Shown: positions 11,702 to 24,883 of the stretch, in pieces
How the letters are laid out: each line of letters starts with the position of its first letter
Position numbering within the stretch: the first letter of the stretch is position 1
NCBI RefSeq assembly: GCF_900129195.1
Contig: NZ_FQUY01000013.1
Span: forward strand, 16,564 to 80,563
Source of the DNA: Desulforamulus putei DSM 12395
GTDB lineage: Bacteria > Bacillota > Desulfotomaculia > Desulfotomaculales > Desulfotomaculaceae
Direction: 5' to 3'
Length of the DNA stretch: 64,000 nucleotides
Translations under genes and position numbers: made by a program
The notes under the pieces: model-generated
Databases searched by the model: none
Told to the model about the DNA's origin: nothing
The model's input: the letters and a program-made list of their open reading frames with translations, nothing else

Positions 11702-11730
11702 AGCCCTACTGTTAAAAAAACAATAAGGCT
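11702..11730 (-). terminator. Leader terminator hairpin (attenuator candidate), operon 1
   Basis: RNA AGCCUUAUUGUU pairs over 12 positions with AACAGUAGGGCU and is followed by a U-run, all between promoter 11936-11963 and the first gene at 11667. A terminator inside a leader suggests regulated readthrough. Confidence 0.7.
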
Positions 11731-11765
11731 TTTTAGACATAAATATAGTATTTTTTTAGATATAA

Positions 11766-11777
11766 GTACGCGCGTAC
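11766..11777. promoter_or_regulatory. GTACGCGCGTAC palindrome, leader 1
   Basis: A perfect 12-bp palindrome followed on the plus strand by CTGTTAAAT. Related palindromes stand at the same place in leaders 2 (18192-18211) and 3 (24719-24730). Confidence 0.6.
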
Positions 11778-11801
11778 CTGTTAAATTTTGTAATTTCTTT
11801 A

Positions 11802-11829
11802 ACCGGTTCCCACTCGTGTGGCATCCGGT
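11802..11829 (-). ncRNA. Leader hairpin motif, copy A
   Basis: Outer stem ACCGG/CCGGT. Inner RNA stem CCAC, loop ACGA, GUGG. Internal loop AUG/GAA. Confidence 0.7.
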
Positions 11830-11840
11830 AAACAATCTCC

Positions 11841-11874
11841 CTATACAGTTCTCACTCGTGTGGCATCTGTATAG
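11841..11874 (-). ncRNA. Leader hairpin motif, copy B
   Basis: Outer stem is 8 bp (CTATACAG/CTGTATAG) with the same 18-nt core. The inner stem carries one base change that becomes a G-U pair. Confidence 0.7.
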
Positions 11875-11883
11875 GACACCCTG

Positions 11884-11911
11884 CCTGGTTCCCACTCGTG
11901 TGGCATCCAGG
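11884..11911 (-). ncRNA. Leader hairpin motif, copy C
   Basis: Outer stem CCTGG/CCAGG around the core TTCCCACTCGTGTGGCAT (plus strand). It is the first copy transcribed after promoter 1. Confidence 0.7.
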
Positions 11912-11935
11912 AAATTAAAAACTAACTATAAAAAA

Positions 11936-11963
11936 ATTATAGCACCTGGTAAAAAAATGGCAA
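11936..11963 (-). promoter_or_regulatory. SigmaA-type promoter of operon 1
   Basis: Minus strand TTGCCA, 16-bp spacer, TATAAT. The spacer end ACCAGGTGC is identical to the one in promoter 3. Confidence 0.75.
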
Positions 11964-11981
11964 TAGAAAAAAAGAAAAAAA

Positions 11982-11996
11982 CCGGCCAACAGCCGG
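11982..11996 (-). terminator. Terminator of the primase operon
   Basis: CCGGC/GCCGG hairpin followed on the minus strand by TTTTTTTCTTTTTTT, located between the primase stop and promoter 1. Confidence 0.8.
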
Positions 11997-12055
11997 ATTC
12001 GGTAATTAGTTAGATTTTCTTGAAACGCATATTTTAAAGATATCATTTTTCTTAA

Positions 12056-12083
12056 ACCGGTTCCTGCTCGTGCAGTATCCGGT
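12056..12083 (-). ncRNA. Leader hairpin motif, copy D (3' of the primase gene)
   Basis: Outer stem ACCGG/CCGGT with inner stem CTGC/GCAG instead of CCAC/GTGG, a two-sided change that keeps pairing. It lies just after the primase stop, not in a leader. Confidence 0.65.
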
Positions 12084-12105
12084 AAACTTTAATGGATTAA
12101 ATTTT

Positions 12106-13182
12106 TTACATTGCCAAAGTTGTGATTTTTGCCCGATTTACCAGGGCATCGTCAATACCTTTTCCTGCATGGACGCTCCAGTATGCTTTATAAACCTTAA
12201 ACCCATGACCAGTTAACAGGTCAACGAGTTTACGGGTGGCTTTTTTAACACCAGGGTTATCCATACGGTCGATGTCGTAAGCTATCACAACTTTTTTGGC
12301 TCCGATTTCTTTTAACACTTCAGGAATTTCGTTAATAATCGCCACTCCACCGTTGGCGATCATTGTTCTTCCTGAAAAGAAATGAGCAATATCAAGTTTT
12401 AAAGGGCCCTCGGTTAAGTAAACCGTAGTCGGGTCATTCCCTATCCGGCAGTGAATAGGACTCCCGGAACCAGCACCTTTACTGGTAGAGAACCATTTGT
12501 ACTTGCCCTTAGATTCGTCGTCAACACGAATCTGCATGGCAATAATTTGTTTTTTAGGGTTCAGCACCGGGATAAAATAGCCTTCAGGAGCATAAAAGTC
12601 CCAATAGAGACCTTTTCTGCCTTCCCGTTGAAAAAAGCCAGGTATCTGGGTCAAATCATATTTTGGGGAAAGAATCCTGGCAATCTTCCACCTTTCGGGG
12701 CCATTATTTGGTACCGACTTATAATGGTTTTTCTTAATAACCTCTTCAGGAAGTTTTCTCCTGATTAAGTCATTCCTGTGTTTGTCGTATAGGGGGAGCA
12801 TAGATAAAAATTCTCTGTAGATAATATCCCGATATTCTGCTATACCCCCTTCGACTGTCCGCCTCACCCTGGGAGTTTCAACAGCCACTGATTCATAAAG
12901 TATGTTCCTCACTTCAGGGTTTTCCGATAACTGACGGTATGCTTCACTGTAAGTAATCCTCATTAAATCTCCATAAAGAGTAAGGGCATTGCCCTCTTTG
13001 CCACAGTTAAAACAGTGGAAGGTTTGTTTTCTGATATTGGCACTGAAACGGGCTTTGTTAGGGTCTTTTTTGCTGTCACCGCAGAAAGGGCAGCGGTAAA
13101 ACCACTCGTCACCAGATTTCTTTTTGGGTTCCATATTTAAAAGTCTGGCAACTTCTGCTATTTCAAAGACTTTAAGTGCCAT
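12106..13182 (-). CDS. DNA primase with CHC2-type zinc finger and Toprim domain
   Basis: 358 residues. An N-terminal zinc finger (CPFCGDS near residue 31, HCFNCGKEG near 57) matches the CHC2 primase type. The C-terminal half has a Toprim-like core: VYLTEGPLKLDIA with the catalytic glutamate, then VVIAYDIDRMDN with the aspartates. It lacks the helicase-binding domain of full DnaG and is close in size to phage/plasmid primases. It would synthesise RNA primers for replication of the element. ATG 13182 has GAGGAGG upstream, and that SD lies inside a 12-codon leader frame overlapping the primase start. Confidence 0.88.
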   Translation of the reverse strand: MALKVFEIAEVARLLNMEPKKKSGDEWFYRCPFCGDSKKDPNKARFSANIRKQTFHCFNCGKEGNALTLYGDLMRITYSEAYRQLSENPEVRNILYESVAVETPRVRRTVEGGIAEYRDIIYREFLSMLPLYDKHRNDLIRRKLPEEVIKKNHYKSVPNNGPERWKIARILSPKYDLTQIPGFFQREGRKGLYWDFYAPEGYFIPVLNPKKQIIAMQIRVDDESKGKYKWFSTSKGAGSGSPIHCRIGNDPTTVYLTEGPLKLDIAHFFSGRTMIANGGVAIINEIPEVLKEIGAKKVVIAYDIDRMDNPGVKKATRKLVDLLTGHGFKVYKAYWSVHAGKGIDDALVNRAKITTLAM

Positions 13183-13210
13183 ACCGCAACCTCCTCACGG
13201 AATATTTCAT
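13172..13210 (-). CDS. Putative 12-codon leader peptide overlapping primase start
   Basis: MKYSVRRLRYGT, ATG 13210, stop TAA 13174-13172. It overlaps the primase start (13182) in another frame. Its two arginine codons AGG-AGG are also the primase Shine-Dalgarno. Upstream, GGGAGG is separated from ATG 13210 by a 10-bp hairpin with a GCAA tetraloop (13218-13241). Translation is inferred, not shown. Confidence 0.4.
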   Translation of the reverse strand: MKYSVRRLRYGT

Positions 13211-13217
13211 AGAAATC

Positions 13218-13241
13218 GGTGCCGACCTTGCGGCCGACACC
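13218..13241 (-). promoter_or_regulatory. GNRA-capped hairpin between SD and leader ATG
   Basis: RNA GGUGUCGGCC-GCAA-GGUCGGCACC, 10 bp with two G-U pairs, directly after a GGGAGG SD. Same layout as at 5882 and 6862. Confidence 0.5.
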
Positions 13242-13273
13242 TTTTCCTCCCTTCGGTGCCGGCCAGGGCCGGG

Positions 13274-14359
13274 TTATTTAATACTAACGAGTTTAAAGTT
13301 TTTAGTTGGTTTAATACTGGCTCCTAATTCCGCAATTTCCTTATCTGTCCAATTCAATTTTTTAAGTCCTGTGGCGGTTAAGGAGAATACGGTTAAGGGG
13401 TCAATATTTTGGTCCTTCATTTTTTCCTCGGCCTTTTTCATGGCTTCCTGTGGAAATTTCCAGTATTGGGAAATTACTAAATCCCACTGTTTTTTTCCAA
13501 CGGGAACCGGACCGTTTTTCTCAACATATTGCTTTAACCGTTCTTTCATCAGGTCGGCGGCCCTTTCAAGCCGGCAGATTTCTCGACCGTATTTTTCTGC
13601 TTCTTTCATGCTTACAAACTCACCGGGATCATCTTCCAGTATATCGGCAAGCTTAGCGCATTCCTCGGCATACCCGCAGTATTCACAAACGTCCCCAGGG
13701 GTGGCCGGGAAAAGCTCGTCAAGATTACCGCCGCAGTTTAGGGCATATATTTTTTGCTGAATATCCAGCGCCGTATCATATGCCCACCTGCGGGCCTTTT
13801 CAATATCCTCCGGGGTATATAAGTGCTCCCGGGTTTCTCCTGTACGCAGGAACACCAGCCGACCGCAGACTGGTTTATTATACTTTTGCGTGAGGTACAG
13901 GGCATATAACCCTAATTGGTGAGTATCCAACGGGTTATATGGAAGCCTGTTGGTTTTCCAGTCCGTTACGACAATCTCTGTATCCGTAACTTCGTAGTAG
14001 TCAATATATCCCTGCAGTTCTGGGCCAAAGGGGTCTTCCGGTGACAAGGAAATTTTGAAATATTCTTCGGTAAACCCCTTACCGATACTTTCAGTAACCT
14101 TTCTCCTGGTAGCCAGAGTCAGGATTTCTTCGGCATTAACAGGGAGTGAAGCTACACCTGCAATAGATTCAGCTAGGAACTTTAATTCTTCTTCTCTTTC
14201 AACTTTTAACACCCGAGCCATCTCAATAAGTGTGTGAACCGATTTCCCGAGTACCAAAGCCTCGGTGACAGGCTCTTTCTTTTCAAGGATATAGCTCTGG
14301 GCAAAAGCCCAGGGGCAACGAGATTTTTTATCTAGTCTCGAATAAGAGAATACTTGCAT
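13274..14359 (-). CDS. PD-(D/E)XK nuclease (Cas4/RecB-type, Fe-S)
   Basis: 361 residues. The N-terminus FSYSRLDKKSRCPWAF is the SxS-R-C-P motif of RecB/AddB/Cas4 nucleases. The core has GYIDYYEV (catalytic Asp) and IVVTDWKTNR (the D-x-K pair), followed by QLGLYAL, motif III of the family. Near residue 218 come CEYC and a third Cys (CAKL); with the N-terminal Cys these make a four-cysteine set that usually holds a 4Fe-4S cluster. It probably processes DNA ends for recombination with the RecA-like and SSB proteins. The start is set at ATG 14359 by AGAAAGGATGAT. Confidence 0.85.
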   Translation of the reverse strand: MQVFSYSRLDKKSRCPWAFAQSYILEKKEPVTEALVLGKSVHTLIEMARVLKVEREEELKFLAESIAGVASLPVNAEEILTLATRRKVTESIGKGFTEEYFKISLSPEDPFGPELQGYIDYYEVTDTEIVVTDWKTNRLPYNPLDTHQLGLYALYLTQKYNKPVCGRLVFLRTGETREHLYTPEDIEKARRWAYDTALDIQQKIYALNCGGNLDELFPATPGDVCEYCGYAEECAKLADILEDDPGEFVSMKEAEKYGREICRLERAADLMKERLKQYVEKNGPVPVGKKQWDLVISQYWKFPQEAMKKAEEKMKDQNIDPLTVFSLTATGLKKLNWTDKEIAELGASIKPTKNFKLVSIK

Positions 14360-14373
14360 TTTTATCATCCTTT

Positions 14374-16743
14374 CTAGCCAGCAATTACTTTTTTAAGCAT
14401 CCTGCCGATGATAATTGGCAGGTTTTCTAATTGCTCTACATTAATGAGGTTGTTATAAATTTTTTGAACAGTAGGCAATGATGAATCCGGGCCAAAGTAG
14501 AACCCGATAACACCAATTCCCTGTTTTTCGGCTTCACGAACAGCAAGGGCGGTGTCTTTATATCCTTCTTCTCCTACATACTTGGTGTAACCATGCCACG
14601 GTTCTCCATCAGAGAGAACCATGATAATCTTTTTTAGCTCACTAACTGCTTGAAGTTCTTGAGTGGCGACCCTAATTGAGTAACCATCTCTGTTTTGAAC
14701 TTCAGCCTTAATGTTTACTAATTTGGTTCCATCCTTTTCACCGAAATTTACATAGTTATGGTGGATCACAATATCGTGTCCTGTGAACGCTGTAAATCCG
14801 GTAATAGAATGGTTGATTTTAAGCTGGGTAAGGACTTCATGCAGCAACACAGCTGTTTTTCGGGCTGTTCTTACCCTGGTTCCACTCATGCTGCCGCTGC
14901 AGTCCACCAGCACCTTGATTGCCAGCGTCGGGTCGTCGGAGGGGTTATTCTTTTTACGGAACACCTTCGCATCAGCTACTCCCAATTTCCAAAGCGCCGA
15001 TGGGTCAACCGCACCTTTCTTGAGGTTTCTGGCAATAAAGTGGTTTTTGTATTCCAACGCCTTCCTGATTTCATCCACTGTCCGAATTATGAGAGGGTTG
15101 ATTTCTTTAACTAATTGGCTGTATCGGACAGTATCCCCGGGCAGGCTGTCAACACGTAGTCTAACATCCCTATTAATCCCCTTTGCCAAAACCGTTTCGA
15201 TTTTAGAAAAGTCGATATCTATTACTGTCTCCGATTCTTTTTCGGTTTCGGCACGTTCGTAGAATTCGAGTTCTTCCTTTGAGGACTCCAAAAGCTCGCT
15301 AAAGTCAACATCTTCGTCGCGTTCTTCCGCAGTTTCAGGAAGGCTTGTTAACCTACCCCCTGGGCTTCCTCCTTCACCTTCGCTGGATTCCGGCGAGTCA
15401 TCCGAAAACTCACCGCCAAAACCAGATGGCTCATCAAATGGCTTGTCGGGTTCACCAGGAAAGTCTACGTCATCAGGAAATTCCCCTGGAAAGTCATCTT
15501 CCGGCAATTCTTCGGTTTCACCAGGTTCGGGCATACTGTCTGAAACATCTTTCGGAATATCTTCCCATAAGTCATCATCCCATGATTCATCTTTGGGTTC
15601 TACAGAAGGTTCGGTTTCCTCTGATGCGCTTTCGGGAATTTTATCTGTGGTTTCTTCTGCGGTCTCTTTCAGAGTTTCATCTGTGGTCTCTTTTGGAGTT
15701 TCTTCGAGAGATTTTTCCGGGGCTTTCTCTGGGGTATCTTCAGAAGTATCTTCCGGGGTTTCTTCCATGACTTCTTCTGGGGCTTCTTCTGGGGCTTTTT
15801 CTGGAGTTTCCCTTGGTGCTTTTCCCGAAGTATCTCCCGGAGCATCTTCGAGAGTTTCTTCAGGGGCTTTTTCCAGGGTTTTCTTTGCAGTTTCTCCAAG
15901 AGATTCCTCCGGGGATTCCTTCGGGGATTTCTCTGGAATAACACTTTCTGAAGTATCCTCTTTAGCCGGAGTTTTAGAGGGTTTTTCCTTCAGCTTTTCG
16001 GTGGGTTCTTTTGACCTTTTTTTGGGTTCCCGTTCTGGAGGTCTGATTTTCGGTGTTTTTCGGGGGTCTTTCCCCATCATTTTGGGTTTCTTTTTAGCTT
16101 TGTCAGTACCTGTCATAGAAGGCTCCGGCAGTGATGGTGGTTCAGGAAAGTGTTTTTTAATAATTTCTGCCGCCTGGTCCGCAAGCTCTAAAACCTCCCA
16201 GGTATCATTAGCCTCCCTGCCAATATCAACTAAAGAAATTAGTTCATAGATTACTTCCATGACATTATCCTGATCTTGAATAGAATCAGGAATGTCACCA
16301 CAAACGGCATAAGTACACATGCCGTTGAGTACAGCTTCTATTCCGGTACCCCAATTCTTGCGGTTTTTGAAAATATACTCATTTTGAAACCGCAGCTGCA
16401 TGGCAGTACCAGGGAAAACCGCAGCCATACATTTTTCGATACGGGAGTCCTCAATAATGTTGACTATGTGCTGGATGAGAACGCCTTTTTCACATGCACT
16501 CTTCCAAGCATTTATATCTGTGAAACGTATGTGCCCAGATTCATGTATGTTTTGGGCTTTCATTGCCAGCCAGCACTCCTCGGGGAGAGCCGGAATGCCA
16601 GGTACAATACTGTCGGTTAACTTTTTAACGAAAATCTTTTTGAAGTCGGTGCTGGCTCTATTGCTAAGCACCACCGTCAAATCGTCCACTTTGGTGAACA
16701 TTCGGGCGAGTGTTTGCAACCGCCACCTTTTAAGTTCGGACAT
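14374..16743 (-). CDS. CobT-like VWA protein with HExxH motif and acidic linker
   Basis: 789 residues in three parts. The N-terminus (1-210) has HESGH at 67-71, an HExxH metal-site motif seen in this VWA family. The middle (about 210-500) is a low-complexity linker of repeated E/T/P/K units such as EETPEDTSED. The C-terminal VWA domain has the MIDAS motif DCSGSMSG (about 600) and LSDGEP. VWA proteins of this sort work with MoxR-type AAA ATPases as chaperone/chelatase-like machines; a MoxR protein is encoded at 20558. Substrate unknown. The linker DNA is repetitive, so its length may vary. Start ATG 16743 has AAGGGG upstream. Confidence 0.85.
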   Translation of the reverse strand: MSELKRWRLQTLARMFTKVDDLTVVLSNRASTDFKKIFVKKLTDSIVPGIPALPEECWLAMKAQNIHESGHIRFTDINAWKSACEKGVLIQHIVNIIEDSRIEKCMAAVFPGTAMQLRFQNEYIFKNRKNWGTGIEAVLNGMCTYAVCGDIPDSIQDQDNVMEVIYELISLVDIGREANDTWEVLELADQAAEIIKKHFPEPPSLPEPSMTGTDKAKKKPKMMGKDPRKTPKIRPPEREPKKRSKEPTEKLKEKPSKTPAKEDTSESVIPEKSPKESPEESLGETAKKTLEKAPEETLEDAPGDTSGKAPRETPEKAPEEAPEEVMEETPEDTSEDTPEKAPEKSLEETPKETTDETLKETAEETTDKIPESASEETEPSVEPKDESWDDDLWEDIPKDVSDSMPEPGETEELPEDDFPGEFPDDVDFPGEPDKPFDEPSGFGGEFSDDSPESSEGEGGSPGGRLTSLPETAEERDEDVDFSELLESSKEELEFYERAETEKESETVIDIDFSKIETVLAKGINRDVRLRVDSLPGDTVRYSQLVKEINPLIIRTVDEIRKALEYKNHFIARNLKKGAVDPSALWKLGVADAKVFRKKNNPSDDPTLAIKVLVDCSGSMSGTRVRTARKTAVLLHEVLTQLKINHSITGFTAFTGHDIVIHHNYVNFGEKDGTKLVNIKAEVQNRDGYSIRVATQELQAVSELKKIIMVLSDGEPWHGYTKYVGEEGYKDTALAVREAEKQGIGVIGFYFGPDSSLPTVQKIYNNLINVEQLENLPIIIGRMLKKVIAG

Positions 16744-16804
16744 AATCTCAGCCCCTTTTTTTAAAAATAAATCCCCGCAAACAATTGTTAACGGGGTTTT
16801 TGGA

Positions 16805-17692
16805 CTATAATTTTTGTAGTAGAGACTTAATAAAGTCTTCTACTTTTCCTTCTGGCAGAGAACATCCGGCAGACTGGGGATGACCACCGCCACCGGCCAG
16901 TTTTGCAAGTTGAGCGACGTTAAATTCTTTTGAGCGAAATGATAATTTCCTGTCCCGGACATTGACAATTACCAAGAAGTCTATATCCATTTCTTGGTTT
17001 TTGTAGTATCCGAGTTCGGAAGTGTATTGTTCTGCATAACATACTCCGAATTTAACAGGCCCTTCAAAAATATCTACATTTGTTTTGCGGATGTATTCCA
17101 TCCGCTTTACTTGAACCGCATCAACTACTGTTTTTTCATAGTCCGTCAGCTGTGGCACTGGGTTGTGCATAAATTTGTTTACCCAGTATTCCCGGCTGGT
17201 TGCAGAAAGTAAATCGTTTAGTGCAACCGCCATTTTAGATTCCGGTGATTCCGGGTTTTGCGTCCATAACCACATGTCGTATGTGTTTACTATATGAACT
17301 AACCTTGATAGTTCAAAATTTAAAAATTCAAAAAGCAAGTTTGCATTATTATCCCATTCAAGTTCTTTAAACATAATACAGGCTCCACATAACGAAGTGT
17401 CGATAACACACCAGGGATATTTCTGCATCCATAAAGCTGTCGCATGGTGGTCAAACAGACGCACCTTCATCCCTGCAGAATTGGCTTTGTCGAGTTCCCG
17501 AGCTACTTCTTTATTAACAGAAATATCGGCTAAATATAGAAGTTCCGGTTCACTTACTAACAAATCCATAACTTTTTGGTTTACAGTCTTATAGTCCTCG
17601 TAAAAAATAACACTGTCTGGAAAGGCTGTTTTAAACACTACGGCACATGCACACCCGTCCATGTCGTTATGGGTCACAAGAATTTTTTTCAT
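16805..17692 (-). CDS. DHH-family phosphoesterase (NrnA-like)
   Basis: 295 residues. Motif I THNDMDG at the N-terminus, motif II LADIS, motif III DHHAT, and a C-terminal DHHA1 signature GGGGHPQSAGC. These residues bind two metal ions. Family members degrade nano-RNA/oligonucleotides or cyclic dinucleotide products, or act as exonucleases on DNA. No extra domain suggests which. ATG 17692 follows GGGGG; the longer frame overlaps the upstream small gene. Possibly clears short RNA or DNA products, an inference. Confidence 0.88.
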   Translation of the reverse strand: MKKILVTHNDMDGCACAVVFKTAFPDSVIFYEDYKTVNQKVMDLLVSEPELLYLADISVNKEVARELDKANSAGMKVRLFDHHATALWMQKYPWCVIDTSLCGACIMFKELEWDNNANLLFEFLNFELSRLVHIVNTYDMWLWTQNPESPESKMAVALNDLLSATSREYWVNKFMHNPVPQLTDYEKTVVDAVQVKRMEYIRKTNVDIFEGPVKFGVCYAEQYTSELGYYKNQEMDIDFLVIVNVRDRKLSFRSKEFNVAQLAKLAGGGGHPQSAGCSLPEGKVEDFIKSLLQKL

Positions 17693-17708
17693 TTTTATAT
17701 ATCCCCCT

Positions 17709-17909
17709 TTAGCCAACTAATTCTTTGATTTCCTGCATCCATTGGGCGTTTTCTTTTGCCCGATGGTATTTCTTTGAGCCATTATCAATAGAAAAATCAA
17801 AACTGGCCTTAGACAGCCAGTTACCTTCTTCTTCTCCCAGGGCTATTGCCCTTTTTTTAATTATCCTTGTCCTGTGAAGTAATACCTTTGACCTTTCGTG
17901 TCTTTGCAT
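17709..17909 (-). CDS. Small basic hypothetical protein
   Basis: 66 residues from ATG 17909 (AAGGAG 8 bases upstream; an ATG two codons earlier is too close). Very basic N-terminal half (HERSKVLLHRTRIIKKR) and a polar helical rest (YHRAKENAQWMQEIKEL). It is the first gene behind leader 2, preceded by an 11-bp hairpin (17946-17971). Possibly nucleic-acid binding by charge only. Confidence 0.6.
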   Translation of the reverse strand: MQRHERSKVLLHRTRIIKKRAIALGEEEGNWLSKASFDFSIDNGSKKYHRAKENAQWMQEIKELVG

Positions 17910-18021
17910 TCGCATCTCTCCTTAAGCCATATTTTTTTAACCGAGGGCTCCCTGGTACCACCAGGAGAGCCAATAAAGTGATACCAGCAAACACCCCCTT
18001 TATTTTTTTTGAAAATAAAAA

Positions 18022-18047
18022 GGCCCTGATTAAAGATAATCAGAGCC
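18022..18047 (-). terminator. Leader terminator hairpin (attenuator candidate), operon 2
   Basis: GGCUCUGAUUA-UCUU-UAAUCAGGGCC followed by UUUUUAUUUU, between promoter 2 and the first gene at 17909. Confidence 0.7.
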
Positions 18048-18087
18048 TTTTAGTCAAGACTTATAATATATTTTTGAAATAACAAAG

Positions 18088-18147
18088 GAAACAAGCATAC
18101 GAGTCCGATCCGCTAAGGGATCTCAATACTCGAAGCATTGTTTCCCG
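18088..18147 (-). ncRNA. Nested hairpin in leader 2
   Basis: A 17-nt imperfect outer inverted repeat (GGAAACAAGCATACGAG against CTCGAAGCATTGTTTCC) encloses GATCC/GGATC. It is found only in leader 2, between the hairpin motifs and the attenuator. Confidence 0.45.
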
Positions 18148-18191
18148 TTCTAGCTGTCTTTAATTCTATTAATTATTCTTTAGAAACACAC

Positions 18192-18211
18192 GTACGCGCG
18201 TACGCGCGTAC
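18192..18211. promoter_or_regulatory. Extended CG palindrome, leader 2
   Basis: GTACGCG units repeated to 20 bp, then CTGTTAAATAATGTAAATC as in leader 3. Alternating CG/TA steps. Confidence 0.55.
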
Positions 18212-18235
18212 CTGTTAAATAATGTAAATCACTAA

Positions 18236-18263
18236 GACAGTACCTACTCGTGTAGCATCTGTC
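18236..18263 (-). ncRNA. Leader hairpin motif, copy E
   Basis: Outer stem GACAG/CTGTC, inner stem CTAC/GTAG (compensatory against CCAC/GTGG), loop TCGT on the plus strand. Confidence 0.7.
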
Positions 18264-18283
18264 ACACACTCATAACCATCCTG

Positions 18284-18311
18284 GCTAGTTCCTGCTCGTA
18301 CAGCATCTAGC
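18284..18311 (-). ncRNA. Leader hairpin motif, copy F
   Basis: Outer stem GCTAG/CTAGC, inner CTGC/ACAG with one mismatch, same 28-bp length and conserved CTCGT core. Confidence 0.65.
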
Positions 18312-18335
18312 TAATTAGAAACTAAAATATAGTAA

Positions 18336-18364
18336 ATTATAACACCCCTAATTAAGATAATCAA
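18336..18364 (-). promoter_or_regulatory. SigmaA-type promoter of operon 2
   Basis: TTGATT, 17-bp spacer, TATAAT on the minus strand, placed relative to copies E/F as in leaders 1 and 3. Confidence 0.7.
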
Positions 18365-18793: not shown

Positions 18794-18831
18794 ATGTGGG
18801 CAAGAGTAGGAAATTTAGGAAGGTGAGAAAG

Positions 18832-19002
18832 ATGTTAGCACCCAAAGCACTTTCCACGCAACAAAGATTGCTTAGAGCTGCAGAGTTGGCTAAAAGAGTT
18901 TATGCTAAAGTTGAGGCTCGTGGGCTTACTGAGGAACAATTAAGAGCAGACATTAAGAAGGCTCGTGAGGATGTCAGAAGTCGTCGTCCCTATCGTACTT
19001 GA
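18832..19002 (+). CDS. Small helical protein, antitoxin-like in size
   Basis: 56 residues, charged and helical, containing GLTEEQLRADIKKAREDVR, a pattern common in small antitoxin-like proteins, and ending RRPYRT. ATG 18832 is preceded by GGAAGGTGAG. That SD is the end of a 10-codon frame at 18794-18826 (MWARVGNLGR), which may couple translation. No toxin gene adjoins it. Function not assigned. Confidence 0.5.
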   Translation: MLAPKALSTQQRLLRAAELAKRVYAKVEARGLTEEQLRADIKKAREDVRSRRPYRT

Positions 19003-19071
19003 TTTATACTACTATTGAGTAAATAAGTCAATAGAAAGGGGGATAAGCCGCTTTCCTCCCCTGAATAAATT

Positions 19072-19167
19072 CAGGGGTATCCAGCGGCGAGATTTCATGA
19101 AGAAAATGCGGACTACAATGCAGCAAGAAACATAAGCATGTCAACTAAATACATAGACAGCAATTAA
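19072..19167 (+). pseudogene. TnpB C-terminal tail remnant
   Basis: The plus-strand frame ending TAA 19165-19167 reads ENADYNAARNI, the RuvC-III end of TnpB (D-x-NAA-x-NI), plus 11 more residues. Everything upstream of it is lost. A CCCCTGAATAAATTCAGGGG hairpin at about 19058-19077 overlaps its start. Confidence 0.75.
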
Positions 19168-19186
19168 GTAATTTATTGTAAATTTT

Positions 19187-19299
19187 AGGCTGACTCCGCA
19201 GCCTGAAGGTGAGAAGTGTTGCTAGAGCCCTTTGTGGACGTGCAATAACGCTCACCAAGCTCCGGGTGAACATCCGGAGGCACCCCCTGAAGTCAGGGG
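19187..19299 (+). ncRNA. Three tandem hairpins after the TnpB tail (omega-RNA-like)
   Basis: AGGCTG/CAGCCT (19187-19204), CTCCGG/CCGGAG (19260-19279) and CCCCTGA/TCAGGGG (19284-19299). Position after TnpB and before the element end is where omega-RNA scaffolds and right-end hairpins of IS200/IS605 elements lie. Assignment by position only. Confidence 0.4.
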
Positions 19300-19460
19300 A
19301 GCGCCATATAGCTGGAAAACATTTTTCAGGAACAGTATAACTTATGCCTTTAGCACAATTTGTCGTCGATCCTACGTGGTTTTTGCGCTATTACCAGTCG
19401 ACAACAAAATTACCTTTTTCAAGCTCCAACAAACCAGGCAAACCAATGCTTTCACAACGA

Positions 19461-19623
19461 GTTCTGGTACCAGCTATATGGGGCTGGAGCGCCCCGCTAT
19501 AACATCCTTTTGGGCCCGGCAGTGGTGGTTCTGGTACCAGCTATATGGGGCTGGAGCATCCATCAATAGTGCAGACATAGTCACCAGTGTAGGGTTCTGG
19601 TACCAGCTATATGGGGCTGGAGC
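19461..19623 (+). CRISPR. Three-repeat CRISPR-like mini-array
   Basis: Three identical 30-bp repeats (starting GTTCTGGTACCAGC, ending GGGGCTGGAGC) at 19461-19490, 19528-19557 and 19594-19623. They are separated by unrelated spacers of 37 and 36 bp. Length and regularity fit a type I or III array. No cas gene is in the window. A 15-bp near-perfect inverse copy of the repeat centre lies at 19301-19315, touching the TnpB-tail hairpins, so an IS-related origin is possible. Orientation is not certain. Confidence 0.7.
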
Positions 19624-19672
19624 CTTCTATACTCATATTCACACCTTTCCTTCTTTCGCATTATTTAGCGAA

Positions 19673-19709
19673 AGTGCATCAGAAGAATTTCACCTCTGAT
19701 GCACTTTTT
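19673..19709. terminator. Bidirectional terminator hairpin
   Basis: AGTGCATCAGA/TCTGATGCACT, 11 bp, with TTTTT on the plus side. It lies between the CRISPR-like array and the stop of the minus-strand gene at 19730. Confidence 0.7.
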
Positions 19710-19729
19710 GAATGTTATACGCATTAGCA

Positions 19730-20086
19730 TTAACTACAAGGATTATCTTTACGACATTTATATTCGCAAGTATTTTTTATTCTGCACATAAAACAACAGT
19801 CGGTGAAACCATGCGGGCATTCCTGGCATTCATTTGTCGATTGCTCTAATACCTCTGAAACAACATCCGTTCCTACTTGCTTTTGAATCATTCCGGTTCC
19901 TCTGCAAGATCCACAGAAGATAGCTTCACAGATGAAGCCTTCTTCAAAAATACATTTACTGTAACCACTTCCCCCGCAAACAGGGCATGGCATTTTGACG
20001 TTTTCAGGAACCGAAATTTGGGATACCGGTATTTTGTGTATACAACCTTTAACCTTCATTTCTCCAATATTGCAGTAATGATTCAT
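19730..20086 (-). CDS. Cysteine-rich zinc-finger protein (DnaJ central domain-like)
   Basis: 118 residues with two CxxCxGxG-type units, CPVCGGSG and CGSCRGTG, as in the DnaJ zinc-binding domain. More cysteine pairs follow (CQEC, CCFMC) with a C-terminal CEYKCRKDNPC. No J domain. The first 30 residues are a short polar lead. It probably binds two or more zinc ions; partner and role unknown. GGGGG precedes ATG 20086, and the upstream gene ends 13 bp away, so they form one operon. Confidence 0.75.
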   Translation of the reverse strand: MNHYCNIGEMKVKGCIHKIPVSQISVPENVKMPCPVCGGSGYSKCIFEEGFICEAIFCGSCRGTGMIQKQVGTDVVSEVLEQSTNECQECPHGFTDCCFMCRIKNTCEYKCRKDNPCS

Positions 20087-20098
20087 TTTTGAACCCCC

Positions 20099-20518
20099 TT
20101 AATTAATATTTTCGCGGTAAATTTTGAACATGGCAAAGTGGTATCGGCCCCACTTATTTACTGCCTCCAAAAAGGCATCCATGTTTTCACGATAACTGTT
20201 TTCTACTTCCGCAAGCACTTGATCTATATGCTTTTTAATATCGGGACGATGTTTTTCTACCCATTCATAACACCCAGCAGGGTAGGCAGCCCGGACTTCA
20301 TTATACACTTCCATCCAAGCCGAATCTGCCTTAGCCTCATCCCATGATATTACCTTCAGCAACTCATCGTGTTTGGCAGATCTAAGTTTTTGTAATAAAG
20401 CCATTGCATCCCCCGGTATTTCCTTTGGGGATTTCCAAGGCAACTTAATGTTGGGCTTTCCGCCCTGAATACTGAATTGCACCCCGTATGTTCTTAATTT
20501 ATCGACCAGGGTTTTCAC
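20099..20518 (-). CDS. Protein with TubC-N-like N-terminal domain
   Basis: 139 residues, GTG start 20518 with GGGAG upstream. Residues 1-55 (LVDKLRTYGVQFSIQGGKPNIK, then LLQKLRSAKHDELLKVI) resemble the TubC N-terminal docking fold, frequently seen in replication/primase-linked proteins of mobile elements. The rest is helical with aromatic residues. Possibly an adaptor for the neighbouring ATPase. Function not established. Confidence 0.6.
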   Translation of the reverse strand: MKTLVDKLRTYGVQFSIQGGKPNIKLPWKSPKEIPGDAMALLQKLRSAKHDELLKVISWDEAKADSAWMEVYNEVRAAYPAGCYEWVEKHRPDIKKHIDQVLAEVENSYRENMDAFLEAVNKWGRYHFAMFKIYRENIN

Positions 20519-20557
20519 GTTTGCACTCCCTTTTTAGATAGCAAAGCCAGGGGTGGC

Positions 20558-21961
20558 TTATGCTAATAGGCTTTGGCAAATATCAGTTACCTGCTCGATT
20601 TCGTACTTATCGCCTAGGCCCTCGGTCAAAACGCTGATGGCAGCACTCTTTAAATTGCTCCCATCCATATACTCCTCCGCAATAGTGAACAGCGCCCGGA
20701 CGGAAAGAGTTCTGTCTGAGATGTCACCGTTTTTTACTCTCTCTGAAAGTAGTTGGAACAATTCAGAGAGCTTTCGGGCGATCTCTCGTTTTACCCCGGT
20801 TTTGTCCTGAATGAGTGACGTTAAATTCTCTCTAGTCAGATGAGGCACATAAATAGACCGAAAGCGGTCTTGGAATGCCTCATTTAAGGGCTTCGTTCCT
20901 GCGTATCCGTAGTTCATGCAGGCAACCAGCCTAAAGGACTCGGGGGCTTTTACCTCGCCATAACCGGGAACCGAAAGGGTTTTCTGCCAGTCAAGCAACC
21001 CATGCAGTAGGGAGGTTACCTCGGGGATGAGCATATTGACTTCATCCACCACCACTAACTCCCCATTTAACACAGCAGATAAAAGAATGCCCGGCTCGAA
21101 ACCAATTTTAAGCTGTGCGCCCCTTAGTTTTTGGACTAACGGCTCAGCATCTATTCCTGCGGCCTTACATGCAGCCCTTAATTTGGTTTCCGTAATCAAG
21201 TCAACGCCCTCCTGGGGTTCCAACGTCTTGGACCCTAACAGGGCTTCGGCAGACAAGTCGATTCCTCCGAATATTTTCCGAATCGGGAGCATCAGTATTG
21301 CCGCCAGGGTTTCGGCCATGGTAGACTTACCGGACCCCTTCGGACCAATCAATAGCGGTGCTACCCATGAGGAACGAGTCATATTACCGACCGCCCGGAT
21401 AACTTCCTCACCGGACGGAATATAATTCGCTTCGGGAATTCTGGATAATTGTTCCGGGGTTAACTTTTCTTTTTGTTTAGCCCGGAACTCTAAAACTCTT
21501 TTCAATATCCGCGGAGGGAAGTTAAACCTTGCCAACCAGCGGTCCTCATCAGGGAGATCAACGGTTTCAGGTATAATTTCTTCCCCTTCGGTTTCATAGA
21601 CCGGTTTTAAAAGTTCAAACCGGCCTTTGCGACCTAATTTTTCTTCGGTTAGGTCTTTTACGATTCTCACCGTATTGGGGTCAGGGATGACACCTGATAC
21701 GGTAACCTCTTCCCGGCGGTTGAAGCCTCTAGCAAAATCTATCAGGGCCGCCAGATGCCAGCATGGCATCCCCTTTTCAATCGCCATGCAATGATGGTCC
21801 ACAATAAGAGTACCAGGATTAATCCGGCACAAAAAAGGATTGGTTGAGGCCATCATTTCGGCGTATATTAAGCCGTCAGCACCCAGACCAACGGTTAATA
21901 TGTTATCTTTTTGCTCAATGTATTTATTGTAATTTTTTTCGAATACACTGATTTTTTTCAT
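20558..21961 (-). CDS. MoxR-type AAA+ ATPase with SWIM-like N-terminal finger
   Basis: 467 residues. Residues about 42-75 have C...(15)...C...(8)...C-W-H, a SWIM-like CxnCxH zinc-finger pattern. The AAA+ core begins near 200: Walker A GPKGSGKST, Walker B LVVVDEVN, a sensor-1 region CMNYGYAGTKPLN and the arginine of QDRFRS. MoxR ATPases act with VWA proteins; the probable partner is the CobT-like protein at 14374, in the neighbouring operon. ATG 21961 follows AGAAAGG. An AGAGGAC/GTCCTCT hairpin lies between it and the upstream gene. Confidence 0.85.
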   Translation of the reverse strand: MKKISVFEKNYNKYIEQKDNILTVGLGADGLIYAEMMASTNPFLCRINPGTLIVDHHCMAIEKGMPCWHLAALIDFARGFNRREEVTVSGVIPDPNTVRIVKDLTEEKLGRKGRFELLKPVYETEGEEIIPETVDLPDEDRWLARFNFPPRILKRVLEFRAKQKEKLTPEQLSRIPEANYIPSGEEVIRAVGNMTRSSWVAPLLIGPKGSGKSTMAETLAAILMLPIRKIFGGIDLSAEALLGSKTLEPQEGVDLITETKLRAACKAAGIDAEPLVQKLRGAQLKIGFEPGILLSAVLNGELVVVDEVNMLIPEVTSLLHGLLDWQKTLSVPGYGEVKAPESFRLVACMNYGYAGTKPLNEAFQDRFRSIYVPHLTRENLTSLIQDKTGVKREIARKLSELFQLLSERVKNGDISDRTLSVRALFTIAEEYMDGSNLKSAAISVLTEGLGDKYEIEQVTDICQSLLA

Positions 21962-22024
21962 AAGAACCATCCTTTCTAAAAATGAAAGAGGACAGCCTTA
22001 AAAAAGACCGTCCTCTTGTTTAGC

Positions 22025-23659
22025 CTATACAGCAGACTTATTATGGGATTTAATACCCGTAATGAATAAGACATTACTGCCTTTAAACTGCTGAACGTTG
22101 CCGGTGACAACCAGAATGTCATTTTCTTTAACAGGGGGCAGTTTAAGCCCGGACTCCTGATCTACCGCAACAACGCCTTTATTTTCGCCCACGAAGGCCC
22201 AGAACCAGTGGACCTTCAGTAATTTACCATTTTCTTCCGCAGAACCTTCCGCCGGAAGTGAGGCCACTTTCAAAGTATAAGTGGGTTCCTCATCGGCTTT
22301 AGGAGGTTCCTCAGCAGGGCTTCCAAAGGACTTGTAGGACTCAACAGTTACTATACCGTCCTTGATTTTCCCGGTAATCTCTACGCCTTCGCCGGGTTTT
22401 AAACCTTCGATGTTGCCAACAATGGTCAGAAGGTTGTCTGTTGCAACATCGAATCCTTTGAAGCCGCCTTCAACGGGATCGGTTATAGCAACCATTCCGG
22501 TATAAGGTTCACCTTCGTCCTCTCCCGCAAAAGTGATGGTAATGCCGGCATACGTTCCGGCTTCCTTGCCATCATTTAACCATTCTGCAGGAGGGGTTAA
22601 GGTTTCATCGGGAGTACCTGGAAGTTGGGGCTCAACCTCGATCTTTTCAAATTGAGCAACCTTAACCTTACCCTCTTTGAATTGACCTTTGATTTTATAT
22701 TTTTCGCCTTCAGCAAAGGAACTGAGTTTTTCGTCGCCTACCAAGCCGTCCACCTTACCGTCCTCTGAGGTTACAGTAACGGTGTAGTAAACACGCTTTT
22801 CGCCATGCTTTTCAGGGGCGGCAGCGATGGTTACAACACCTTCGTAAACCTCAACCTGTGGCTTCGGATCAGTTTTTGGAGGTTCAGGTTTGGATTCGAG
22901 TTTAGCTTCAGGTTTAGGTTCGGGTTCCGGGGGATCAATCGGCACACCGCCTGCATTCAGCCAATCCAGCAGGATTTGACCGGTTTGAACCGACGGCTTG
23001 AAATACCGACCATCCAGCGTGTTGGTGCGGTCTTTTGAGGCCCTGGCCATATGGTCATGGTCGATGTCCAAAAAGACCGTGAATTCGTATTCCATGCCGT
23101 CCCTTTGGATAGGTGCCATGCCCACTTTTCTAATAACGGTTTTCCCTCTATCATCAACCGTTTGGACGTACTCAGTTTTCGCCCTAATTGTTGCCAAAAT
23201 GTGCAGCTTGGACTGCAGCATGGCATCGACCAGTGCATTATGCTGCGGCGTGACTTTGCGCCACGCTGCCCAAGAATTGTTTACCTCCCCACGGTCAACA
23301 ATACCACCGTGGATGTCTAACAAACCTCCCTGACCTGCCCAGGCGTGGGTTAACGAATCAATAATCAGCGCTTTTAACCCACTTCTTTCGGCCATTTCAA
23401 TTGCTTGAATGTATTTTTCCGGGGTAAAGGGAGGAGTAATCTCGCAAGTTAAGTATTGGCCGATGCGGACACCGTTGATTTCAGCTCCGACATAGAGTTC
23501 GCCGGAGCGATTTTCAGTATCGGCAATACCAATGAGCCCCCAATCTTTTACCAGCCCATAAGCCATTAATAGTGAACTGGCAGTCTTACCGGAACCTGAA
23601 GGGCCACTGATACCTAATTTTATAAAAGCATTAGACCTTTTGGCAGGACGAAATTCCAT
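22025..23659 (-). CDS. RecA-like P-loop ATPase (Sak4/phage recombinase type) with OB-like tail
   Basis: 544 residues. The N-terminal ATPase has Walker A GPSGSGKTAS, DTENRSGEL after strand 2, Walker B ALIIDSLTHAW and a later sensor (ILATIRAKTEY), as in Sak4-type single-strand annealing/recombination ATPases of phages. After a proline/lysine/glutamate-rich linker (about 240-275) come about three beta-rich repeats (VYEGVVTIAA, TYAGITITFAG, YTLKVASLPA) that look like OB-type domains. That layout is unusually long for Sak4. AAGGAGG precedes ATG 23659. SSB is encoded 78 bp upstream, a normal pairing. Confidence 0.82.
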   Translation of the reverse strand: MEFRPAKRSNAFIKLGISGPSGSGKTASSLLMAYGLVKDWGLIGIADTENRSGELYVGAEINGVRIGQYLTCEITPPFTPEKYIQAIEMAERSGLKALIIDSLTHAWAGQGGLLDIHGGIVDRGEVNNSWAAWRKVTPQHNALVDAMLQSKLHILATIRAKTEYVQTVDDRGKTVIRKVGMAPIQRDGMEYEFTVFLDIDHDHMARASKDRTNTLDGRYFKPSVQTGQILLDWLNAGGVPIDPPEPEPKPEAKLESKPEPPKTDPKPQVEVYEGVVTIAAAPEKHGEKRVYYTVTVTSEDGKVDGLVGDEKLSSFAEGEKYKIKGQFKEGKVKVAQFEKIEVEPQLPGTPDETLTPPAEWLNDGKEAGTYAGITITFAGEDEGEPYTGMVAITDPVEGGFKGFDVATDNLLTIVGNIEGLKPGEGVEITGKIKDGIVTVESYKSFGSPAEEPPKADEEPTYTLKVASLPAEGSAEENGKLLKVHWFWAFVGENKGVVAVDQESGLKLPPVKENDILVVTGNVQQFKGSNVLFITGIKSHNKSAV

Positions 23660-23737
23660 AGTTGAATCCTCCTTAATTAATAATTTTTAGATGTGAAAGG
23701 GCAGGTTTATTTCCTGCCCTTTAGCCTTAGTTAGTTA

Positions 23738-24493
23738 TTAAAACGGTATGTCGTCCAAATCTCCGAACGGATTGTCACCGAATGGATTGGATTCCTTTTT
23801 CTTCGAGCTGAATGGGTTTTCTAAAGGTGGAGTTTCCTCAGCTTTAGAACCACCGCCATTACTACCGCCGCCGCAAAGACGAACGGTGTTTACTATAATT
23901 TCCCATGCGGTACGTTCTTCACCCTCTTTTGAGGTATATCTCCGGCTCCGAAGGCTGCCTTCAACCAGGAGTGGAGTACCTTTTTTGATGTACTGGCAGG
24001 TCTTTGCTGCTTCCCAATATTGGCAGTTAAAAAAGTCTGTCCCATCGTCTTTGTTGAAACCGCGATTAACCGCAATCGCAAAGTTGCCAACGTCTTTGCC
24101 ATTTGTCGTTGTCCTATTTTCACAATCTTTTGTGGATCGCCCAAGCAGGACAACTTCGTTTAAAAACGGGACTTCTTCCTCGGTTACAGGGAAGGGAATA
24201 ATTCTCGTAAGAACAAGCTCAACTACTTTTTTCTTAGCGCCGCCGTCAAGCTCTATGGTCCGGTCAATAAGGCGACCTTCAACCATATAAAACTTGTTGG
24301 CTTCCACGTTTTTAACAACGGCAACCTGTCCGTTATAGGCGTGGATATTAAGTGACATCGAAACATACTGCCGACCTTCCTCGTTCGTGCGGACTATCTC
24401 CAGCACAAAACGAGCATAAGGTTGATCTCCCTCCGTTACATCCGGGAATCCAGCAGCTCTTCCAATAAATCTTGCTTTGTTGTAAAAAGACAT
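23738..24493 (-). CDS. ssb: Single-stranded DNA-binding protein
   Basis: 251 residues, longer than the common 150-180. Two OB-fold-like segments are visible: the first at 3-110 (FIGRAAGFPDV, YVSMSLNIHAY), the second with EVVLLGRSTKD, GKDVGNFAIAVNR and YWEAAKTCQYIKKG, the classic SSB region. The C-terminus is the conserved acidic tip DLDDIPF. It protects single-stranded DNA and recruits partners via the tip. ATG 24493 follows AAAGGATGAT; an in-frame TTG at 24610 with a perfect SD would add 39 residues coded by the hairpin switch. Confidence 0.9.
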   Translation of the reverse strand: MSFYNKARFIGRAAGFPDVTEGDQPYARFVLEIVRTNEEGRQYVSMSLNIHAYNGQVAVVKNVEANKFYMVEGRLIDRTIELDGGAKKKVVELVLTRIIPFPVTEEEVPFLNEVVLLGRSTKDCENRTTTNGKDVGNFAIAVNRGFNKDDGTDFFNCQYWEAAKTCQYIKKGTPLLVEGSLRSRRYTSKEGEERTAWEIIVNTVRLCGGGSNGGGSKAEETPPLENPFSSKKKESNPFGDNPFGDLDDIPF

Positions 24494-24543
24494 TAAAATC
24501 ATCCTTTCTCGAAATAAAATATTTTTAAGACCTGTGGTCTGTC

Positions 24544-24590
24544 GCTTCGTTAGTCCCCTTATGGGACTAACGAAGCAGTCCCATAAGGGG
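24544..24590 (-). promoter_or_regulatory. Two mutually exclusive 14-bp hairpins upstream of ssb
   Basis: Perfect inverted repeats CCCCTTATGGGACT (24555-24568)/AGTCCCATAAGGGG (24577-24590) and GCTTCGTTAGTCCC (24544-24557)/GGGACTAACGAAGC (24563-24576) overlap, so the RNA can form one or the other. An SD AAAGGAGGTGG sits just upstream (24611-24621). Confidence 0.7.
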
Positions 24591-24657
24591 AAAATAATGA
24601 TGGCGGTCAACCACCTCCTTTAGAGAGTAAAAAATTTAAGGCTTATAAACGCAAAAA

Positions 24658-24683
24658 AGCCCTTAATGCGAACATTAAGAGCT
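24658..24683 (-). terminator. Leader terminator hairpin (attenuator candidate), operon 3
   Basis: AGCUCUUAAUG-UUCG-CAUUAAGGGCU followed by UUUUUU, a UUCG-capped intrinsic terminator between promoter 3 and ssb. Confidence 0.75.
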
Positions 24684-24718
24684 TTTAGAACTAAATATTT
24701 ATGAATTTTTAGACACAG

Positions 24719-24730
24719 GTACGCGTATAC
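24719..24730. promoter_or_regulatory. CG palindrome, leader 3
   Basis: GTACGCGTATAC followed by CTGTTAAATAATGTAAATC, matching leader 2 over the whole following block. Confidence 0.55.
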
Positions 24731-24756
24731 CTGTTAAATAATGTAAATCATCCAAG

Positions 24757-24780
24757 CAGTCCCCACTCGGGTGGCATCTG
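24757..24780 (-). ncRNA. Leader hairpin motif, copy G
   Basis: Inner stem CCAC/GTGG. The outer stem is weaker (CAG/CTG plus a G-U pair). Loop TCGG instead of TCGT on the plus strand. Confidence 0.6.
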
Positions 24781-24801
24781 TCAATACTCAAAATCACCCT
24801 G

Positions 24802-24829
24802 CTCGGTTCCTGTTCGTACAGCCTCCGAG
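24802..24829 (-). ncRNA. Leader hairpin motif, copy H
   Basis: Outer stem CTCGG/CCGAG, inner stem CTGT/ACAG, both compensated relative to other copies. Confidence 0.7.
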
Positions 24830-24854
24830 TAATTAAAAACTAAACTATGGAAAA

Positions 24855-24883
24855 ATTATAGCACCTGGTAAAAAACTTGGCAA
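24855..24883 (-). promoter_or_regulatory. SigmaA-type promoter of operon 3
   Basis: TTGCCA, 17-bp spacer ending ACCAGGTGC, TATAAT on the minus strand. Confidence 0.75.

What the first reader, a model, noticed from the sequence alone, without database searches (positions are those of the whole stretch)
11766..24883. A repeated, covarying leader hairpin tied to three near-identical promoters
Seen: eight copies (11802, 11841, 11884, 12056, 18236, 18284, 24757, 24802) of one element with an 18-nt core, TTCCCACTCGTGTGGCAT or a variant on the plus strand. On the transcribed strand each folds as an outer stem of about 5-8 bp, an internal loop AUG/GAA, an inner stem of 4 bp and an ACGA-type loop. Outer stems differ in nearly every copy (ACCGG, CTATACAG, CCTGG, GACAG, GCTAG, CTCGG) yet keep pairing; inner stems change CCAC/GTGG to CTAC/GTAG, CTGC/GCAG and CTGT/ACAG. 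Seven copies lie in three leaders with the order promoter, 2-3 hairpins, conserved TTAAATAATGTAAATC block, GTACGCG palindrome, terminator hairpin, gene. Known: such covariation is the signature of selected RNA structure. Inferred: an element-wide RNA regulon in which a protein or ligand binding the hairpins controls readthrough into replication/recombination operons. I do not recognise it as a known family.
Basis: partly seen in the sequence, partly recalled or inferred. Interest (0 to 1): 0.93.

Follow-up and report, generated by a model that had tools for sequence, protein, structure and literature searches.

The report
Private RNA hairpins gating mobile-element operons
A bacterial DNA element with conjugation genes carries tandem small RNA hairpins between predicted promoters and predicted transcription stop signals, and related elements carry differently spelled hairpins at matching places; the hairpins likely let RNA polymerase pass the stop signals so that replication operons switch on together, predicted to happen with help from an RNA-binding protein that the element makes.

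Summary
In detail: eight minus-strand hairpins, seven in three promoter-hairpins-palindrome-terminator-gene leaders, one between the primase gene and its terminator. Pairing covaries. The design is not private to this window. Of the 10 other genomes of the class with the element's AAA+ gene, 8 hold, in nine related elements, tandem hairpins of similar architecture spelled differently by sub-family. Arrays lie behind the homolog of ORF 24985-25620 in 8 of 8 elements that have it, and behind the primase in 5 of 9. No Rfam family matches. Six leader terminators end 28-36 nt before the start codon or 7-15 nt before the ribosome-binding site, so the next gene seems to need readthrough. Best reading: an antitermination regulon of conjugative elements in which tandem hairpins recruit a factor to RNA polymerase. 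Best candidate reader: the element's S1-domain protein, a weak link, since distant S1 homologs occur without detected arrays. It resembles pLS20 conAn, HK022 put and lambda N/nut in design but failed the conAn, LoaP and ANTAR tests that gave an answer. New variant of a known kind; function untested.

The parts
11936..11963 (-). predicted promoter of leader 1 (TTGCCA-16-TATAAT, extended -10)
   Evidence: 11 of 12 consensus matches
11884..11911 (-). hairpin, leader 1, first
11841..11874 (-). hairpin, leader 1, second (long outer stem, one inner mismatch)
11802..11829 (-). hairpin, leader 1, third
11781..11796 (-). diverged copy of the TTAAATAATGTAAATC block
   Evidence: alignment of the leaders
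11766..11777 (.). palindrome GTACGCGCGTAC, likely a double-stranded operator
11698..11734 (-). predicted intrinsic terminator of leader 1, 28 nt before the next start codon
12056..12083 (-). single hairpin between the primase stop codon and its terminator
11982..11996 (-). predicted terminator after the primase operon, about 51 nt after the single hairpin
18336..18364 (-). predicted promoter of leader 2
   Evidence: 10 of 12 consensus matches
18284..18311 (-). hairpin, leader 2, first
18236..18263 (-). hairpin, leader 2, second
18215..18230 (-). conserved block TTAAATAATGTAAATC (as on the plus strand)
18192..18211 (.). doubled palindrome
18018..18051 (-). predicted terminator of leader 2, 107 nt before the next start codon
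24855..24883 (-). predicted promoter of leader 3 (TTGCCA-17-TATAAT)
   Evidence: 11 of 12 consensus matches
24802..24829 (-). hairpin, leader 3, first
24757..24782 (-). hairpin, leader 3, second (weak outer stem)
24734..24749 (-). conserved block TTAAATAATGTAAATC (as on the plus strand)
24719..24730 (.). palindrome GTATACGCGTAC
24655..24686 (-). predicted terminator of leader 3, 159 nt before the start codon used
25849..26736 (-). protein with S1 domains, candidate hairpin reader (inferred)
   Evidence: Pfam S1; model of mean pLDDT 82, pTM 0.66, read as three S1/OB folds, best fold matches ribosomal S1
24985..25620 (-). conserved protein of unknown function directly upstream of leader 3
   Evidence: no Pfam, NCBIfam or PHROGs match; a hairpin array follows its homolog in 8 of 8 elements
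23738..24610 (-). SSB gene, first of the leader 3 operon
   Evidence: Pfam SSB
12106..17915 (-). leader 2 operon: small ORF, DHH protein, CobT-type VWA protein, PD-(D/E)XK nuclease, primase
7268..11667 (-). start of the leader 1 operon: small ORF, DUF6094 methyltransferase, SNF2-type helicase

Best explanation
The tandem hairpins are selected RNA structures that likely recruit a factor, best candidate the element's own S1-domain protein, to RNA polymerase in the leader, and this would let transcription pass the predicted terminator and switch several replication and recombination operons on together. Shown from sequence: hairpins, covariation, placement between predicted promoters and predicted terminators, and a similar arrangement with other spellings in nine related elements. 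Inferred: transcription from these promoters, readthrough as the regulated step, and a trans factor that reads the hairpins. The S1 protein as reader is a guess of about 0.25-0.3. Because the hairpins end 22-184 nt before the nine terminators measured, action through the polymerase, as with lambda N or put, is more likely than mutually exclusive folding.
For: Covariation in the window and in 21 hand-aligned hairpins of four relatives (121 of 126 outer cells paired, shuffles at most 94). Model R1 lists only these 8 in 113 genomes at E up to 0.01. Model R2, from 7 hairpins of two relatives: of its 20 best hits in 581 kb, 8 are training hairpins or an identical copy, 11 of the other 12 lie in the arrays described here, 1 does not; several of the 11 had first been seen with a tip pattern. 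Arrays lie behind the homolog of ORF 24985-25620 in 8 of 8 elements and behind the primase gene in 5 of 9 elements with a primase match. All 15 leaders folded end in a terminator hairpin. Terminators end 28 nt (window leader 1) and 29, 36, 44, 48 and 62 nt (relatives) before the start codon that I took, or 7, 8 and 15 nt before the ribosome-binding site, leaving little or no room for a further promoter; in leaders 2 and 3 (107 and 159 nt) no promoter-like match lies behind the terminator. A close S1 homolog is in 9 of the 11 genomes with the AAA+ gene.
Against: No transcript, binding or reporter data. The 21 hairpins were mostly picked with a pattern that demanded 4 outer pairs, so pairing as such is partly by construction; the variety of pairs is not. 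More distant S1 homologs (31-42% identity) are in eight genomes (G062, G025, G035, G191, G375, G378, G405, G439); in the seven fetched I saw no convincing arrays, though the scan gave candidates that I set aside by eye, so S1 is not diagnostic. G068 and G069 have the AAA+ gene but no S1 hit. Seven arrays lie inside operons without an evident promoter, six of them also without an evident terminator behind them (by eye). R2 gives hits in 46 of 113 genomes at E up to 1e-3, mostly single and weak, which I take as background. In 5 of the 15 leader folds (window leader 3, G075 965k, G054, G073 C20, G026) at least one drawn hairpin is replaced by other pairings. A basic 68-aa ORF behind leader 2 (17709-17915) is an alternative, unfollowed candidate reader; it had no match in the relatives.
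Confidence: 0.5

Rival explanations
1. The hairpin pair acts in cis on RNA polymerase without a dedicated protein, as HK022 put is reported to do and Tn916 canT RNA is suspected to do.
For: putRNAs have two stem-loops after early promoters and act on terminators at least 10 kb away (PMC9378689, passages); canT is an RNA in a conjugative element (PMC11658703, passages). No protein is proven here.
Against: A terminator 22-184 nt behind the arrays measured would then be bypassed always, and its conservation would be hard to explain; spelling differs between elements in related hosts, which suits a co-evolving reader better.
Confidence: 0.22
2. The hairpins are RNA stability, processing or attenuation signals whose main effect is on mRNA life or on strengthening termination, not on readthrough.
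For: Arrays also lie inside operons, six of them without an evident terminator behind them.
Against: Place between predicted promoter and terminator in many leaders; shared spelling within an element with changing stems points to a specific reader.
Confidence: 0.13
3. A DNA-level device for entry into a recipient cell: a single-stranded promoter or an establishment leader such as EGeRS1 of pLS20.
For: Several operons, among them SSB, share the leader; EGeRS1 precedes several operons with an unknown mechanism (PMC8708921, abstract, section 4.1 and passages).
Against: In minimum-energy DNA folds no single duplex holds both promoter boxes (paired positions on the coding strand 10 of 28, 17 of 29, 3 of 29; on the template strand 10 of 28, 13 of 29, 13 of 29); EGeRS1 is 400-600 bp, and the one analysed has no strong promoter, whereas these leaders are short with a strong predicted promoter.
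Confidence: 0.05
4. Host ANTAR-domain regulators bind the tandem hairpins.
For: The genome encodes three ANTAR matches; ANTAR sites are tandem stem-loops before terminators (PMC3369931, passages).
Against: No A1/G4 hexaloops; the second hairpin does not overlap the terminator; none of the three lies on the element's contig.
Confidence: 0.03

Closest known systems
conAn of plasmid pLS20 (ConAn1 protein and conAn2 RNA)
   Different: No ConAn1 homolog found by tblastn (best E 0.12); in the 32 of 66 kb of pLS20 searched, no R1 match and one weak R2 match of 12.4 bits; several replication operons instead of one conjugation operon.
HK022 put RNA
   Same: Two stem-loops near an early promoter that act on terminators at a distance (PMC9378689, passages).
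   Different: Here the hairpins are about 26-34 nt, separate, two or three per leader and element-specific in spelling; need for a protein unknown. No sequence comparison with put was made.
lambda N with nut/boxB
   Same: Hairpin copies in more than one operon and element-specific spelling, as among lambdoid phages (the phage part is recalled, not from a call).
   Different: No systematic search for a small arginine-rich N-like protein was made; one search lists two small basic ORFs (17709-17915, 26824-27138) that were not followed up.
LoaP with the dfn hairpin
   Same: Small leader hairpin upstream of an intrinsic terminator (PMC12691694, passages).
   Different: Only one NusG-domain match in the genome; loop ACGA or CCGA, not UNCG.
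ANTAR dual hexaloop
   Same: Tandem stem-loops before a terminator (PMC3369931 and PMC8934654, passages).
   Different: No A1/G4 hexaloop; no overlap with the terminator.
EGeRS1 establishment leaders of pLS20
   Same: Repeated structured leaders before several operons of a conjugative element.
   Different: Much longer, and the one analysed has no strong promoter (PMC8708921).

Membership tests
conAn (pLS20) | ConAn1 protein (ORF28 per PMC11730352; taken as NC_015148 2564-3082 from gene order) | tested here: not met
   tblastn against window and relatives, best E 0.12; remote homology not tested
[quoted passage not shown]
   All 8 window copies lie at 11.8-24.8 kb, at replication/recombination operons
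LoaP | A specialised NusG paralog in the genome | tested here: not met
   One NusG match only
LoaP | UNCG-type hairpin in the leader | tested here: not met
   Loop is ACGA or CCGA in all 8 copies
ANTAR-responsive leader | Hexaloops with A at 1 and G at 4 | tested here: not met
   Tetraloop ACGA/CCGA closed by a 4-bp stem
ANTAR-responsive leader | Second hairpin overlaps the terminator | tested here: not met
   Last hairpin ends 51-184 nt before the four terminators of the window
ANTAR-responsive leader | ANTAR protein present | tested here: inconclusive
   Three in the host genome, on contigs C24 and C17, none on C36
put RNA | Two stem-loops of about 70 nt near an early promoter | tested here: inconclusive
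   Two or three separate hairpins near the promoter, but no comparison with put sequences was made
put RNA | Acts without a dedicated protein | not testable with these tools
   Needs transcription assays
Single-stranded DNA promoter | Promoter boxes brought into one duplex by folding of one strand | tested here: not met
   Minimum-energy folds of both strands of the three leaders only; parts of the boxes pair, but not both in one duplex
Any Rfam 15 family | Match at gathering score | tested here: not met
   None in the window; in the 15 loci of relatives scanned only HEARO, group II introns and a CRISPR repeat matched, none on an array

The most novel reading that the evidence does not exclude
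A family of conjugative elements gates its replication operons by antitermination with a private hairpin alphabet: each sub-family writes its own hairpin spelling into the same leader positions and reads it with its own S1-domain protein, so that related elements in one cell stay deaf to each other. One Desulforudis genome bin even holds two such elements with two different alphabets (G073 C20 and C65).
Probability: 0.2. Interest if true: 0.85.

Novelty: new variant of a known kind. Interest (0 to 1): 0.68.

Why it matters
It would add an antitermination regulon acting on replication rather than on transfer operons to the few known in conjugative elements. The natural set of differently spelled hairpins at matching positions gives a ready test of how an RNA code and its reader co-evolve. 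The hairpins are short, so binding and readthrough can be tested directly in Bacillus subtilis.

Tried and rejected
Chance or coding repeat: rejected by covariation, location in gaps between genes, and uniqueness in the genome; the look-alike on contig C37 lies, by eye, in a reading frame. Rfam at lax threshold: only hits far below the gathering scores. Plasmid collection: no near match for 13 kb, no distant DNA match for the SSB gene and leader 3; the VWA protein has 540 partial matches, all under 60% identity and none over 80% of its length. Viral contigs with two exact patterns: none. A second NusG (LoaP) as reader: one NusG only. ORF 24985-25620 as reader: the model is poor (pLDDT 57) and no fold match reaches E 0.001; left open. 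Direct competition between hairpins and terminator: one relative shows a short complementarity by eye, the window leaders do not; rejected as general. Single-stranded promoter. Palindrome as part of the RNA signal: in relatives it lies elsewhere, in one also upstream of a promoter, or was not found, so I treat it as a separate operator. R2 hits in 46 of 113 genomes: only the strong ones were followed; of those, G036 C13 and G075 at 2.54 Mb look by eye like coding sequence. Seven weak hits in G081 (20.9-21.6 bits) and hits in G085, G112, G064 and others were not examined. G068 (locus L030) and G439 were not examined. In one search the row for the G075 937k leader is void (I gave a wrong terminator string) and was dropped; one search shows that leader's fold.
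Full report
What was checked. The eight elements are real and at the given places. All lie on the minus strand, which is also the strand of the neighbouring genes. The alignment of the eight copies gives 88.8% of cells paired over 10 pairs and a covariation score of 0.754, against 0.305 in shuffles (none of 500 as high) and 0.014-0.175 when the partner strand is slid. Seven pairs change on both sides (17 of 500 shuffles reach that), and the number of pair types is no higher than in shuffles. Eight copies are few and related, so this is strong but not formal proof; the relatives below carry more weight.

Anatomy. In the order of transcription, each leader has a predicted promoter (10-11 of 12 consensus matches with an extended -10), two or three hairpins, the conserved block, a GTAYRCGCGTAC palindrome, a predicted terminator with 14-16 pairs, and the gene. 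Promoter-like matches as such are near chance number in these AT-rich stretches (1-4 found, 1.5-2.2 expected), but these three are the best matches of their stretches and lie at one place in the alignment. The eighth hairpin lies about 22 nt after the primase gene and about 51 nt before a short terminator, in front of leader 1. Leader 1 precedes a small ORF, a DUF6094 methyltransferase and an SNF2-type helicase; leader 2 a small ORF, a DHH protein, a VWA protein, a PD-(D/E)XK nuclease and a primase; leader 3 an SSB, two AAA proteins and small ORFs. The element also encodes a T4 coupling protein, a ParM-like protein and a sliding clamp, so it is a conjugative-type element. The contig ends do not overlap, so plasmid or integrated element is open.

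Relatives. The AAA+ gene finds relatives in 10 other genomes of 113 searched in the class. I fetched stretches of nine of the ten; G068 was not examined, and the 18 kb contig of G069 gave no arrays. The other eight genomes hold nine elements, all with hairpin arrays: G075 five (four in leaders with terminators, one behind the primase), G017 four, G054 two, G036 two, G096 three, G073 C20 two, G026 one, G073 C65 two and G045 one. The arrays of G026, G073 and G045 were recognised by eye or by a tandem scan, not by a model; those of G096 are less regular, with one model hit each.

Spelling. In G075, G017, G054, G036 and, more loosely, G096 and G026, the tip is CUUnnAAG on an outer stem such as CCGG/CCGG with a 0-2 nt bulge. 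Over 21 such hairpins of G075, G017, G054 and G036, aligned by hand, 121 of 126 outer cells pair; shuffles give 82.4 on average and 94 at most. Most had been picked with a pattern that asks for 4 outer pairs, so the level of pairing is partly by construction, the variety of pairs is not. G073 C20 uses CCGGUCCC-GGA-GGGAUCGG and close variants, G073 C65 CGC-UGUU-GCG tips (UGGU in one of four), and G045 GUGC-CCGA-GCGC and GUGC-UCAA-GCGC. Tandem pairs with the CUUnnAAG tip are far above shuffles in G075, G017, G054 and G036 (for example 5 on the coding strand of G075 against 0.15 expected on both) and absent by this test in the window, G096, G073, G026, G045 and G069. The window's own spelling is found nowhere else among 113 genomes of the class at E up to 0.01. 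So hairpin sequence is specific to the element or sub-family while position is shared: 8 of 8 elements with a homolog of ORF 24985-25620 have an array behind it (31-410 nt away; in G054, with 410 nt, an insert lies between), 5 of 9 elements with a primase match have one behind the primase, and 3 have one next to the clamp gene.

Why readthrough. All 15 leaders that I folded, each cut at the end of the terminator, end in a terminator hairpin in the minimum-energy structure; in 10 of them the drawn hairpins also form, some in a slightly shifted register, and in 5 at least one is replaced. In leader 1 of the window only 28 nt separate the terminator from the start codon; five leaders of relatives measured have 29-62 nt to the start codon that I took, and in G045 and G073 C65 the terminator ends 7-15 nt before the ribosome-binding site. 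A promoter hardly fits into such gaps, so the downstream genes appear to need readthrough. Leaders 2 and 3 leave 107 and 159 nt, but no promoter-like match lies there. Because hairpins and terminators do not overlap, action through the polymerase is the simplest reading. This step is inference.

Who reads the hairpins. The element's evident RNA-binding protein has S1 domains, modelled as what I read as three S1/OB folds, with ribosomal S1 as best fold match. Homologs are in 12 of 113 genomes of the class, 9 of them among the 11 genomes with the AAA+ gene; in G036 it lies on another contig. Against it: more distant homologs in eight genomes; in the seven of these that I fetched, a tandem scan gave no convincing arrays (judged by eye; gaps of three of them folded). 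S1 domains are known mainly as single-strand binders (recalled). I give this link about 0.25-0.3. A small basic ORF behind leader 2 (17709-17915) is another candidate that I did not follow.

Known systems. pLS20 conAn, Tn916 canT, HK022 put, LoaP, ANTAR and EGeRS1 were compared through passages of papers, for EGeRS1 also the abstract and one section; the original conAn paper is not held. Tests for conAn, LoaP and ANTAR membership failed where they gave an answer; presence of an ANTAR protein is inconclusive. I found no description of this hairpin family: no Rfam match and none among the listings of paper searches; these cover open-licence papers only.

Verdict. A real, conserved and apparently undescribed RNA regulon of a family of conjugative elements, most likely an antitermination system. 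Mechanism and reader are untested.

Noticed in passing
L034 3160-3380, L051 6700-6930, L056 3280-3450, G096 C146 9.4 and 25.6 kb (L049, L035): Operon-internal arrays of relatives are preceded by another conserved structured RNA: outer stem, UGCU, inner stem, UGGAG, outer stem. In five sequences 12 of 22 predicted pairs have at least one sequence that keeps the pair through changes on both sides.
   Followed up: partly
L036 10490-10699: A HEARO RNA (RF02033) is inserted between promoter and hairpins of the G054 leader; others are in L036 and L038.
   Followed up: no
window 33148-33300: Four tandem inverted repeats of the type GTGTCC...GGACAC, spaced 42, 42 and 33 nt, inside the DnaD-like replication gene; possibly iterons or an origin.
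   Followed up: no
window 18085-18150: Extra long hairpin in leader 2 between palindrome and terminator, absent from leaders 1 and 3.
   Followed up: no
window 19465-19630: Three tandem 66-67 nt repeats.
   Followed up: no
window 17709-17915: First ORF behind leader 2 encodes a 68-aa protein with a basic N-terminal part; no match in relatives. A possible N-like reader.
   Followed up: no
L116 4850-5100 and 5860-6080: Two similar long structured stretches, each followed by a terminator, behind a distant S1 homolog in G062; no Rfam match.
   Followed up: no
window 11766, 18192, 18200, 24719; relatives: Palindrome GTAYRCGCGTAC with sites in several elements (1-4 each, none found in others), in one case upstream of a predicted promoter: likely an operator.
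   Followed up: partly
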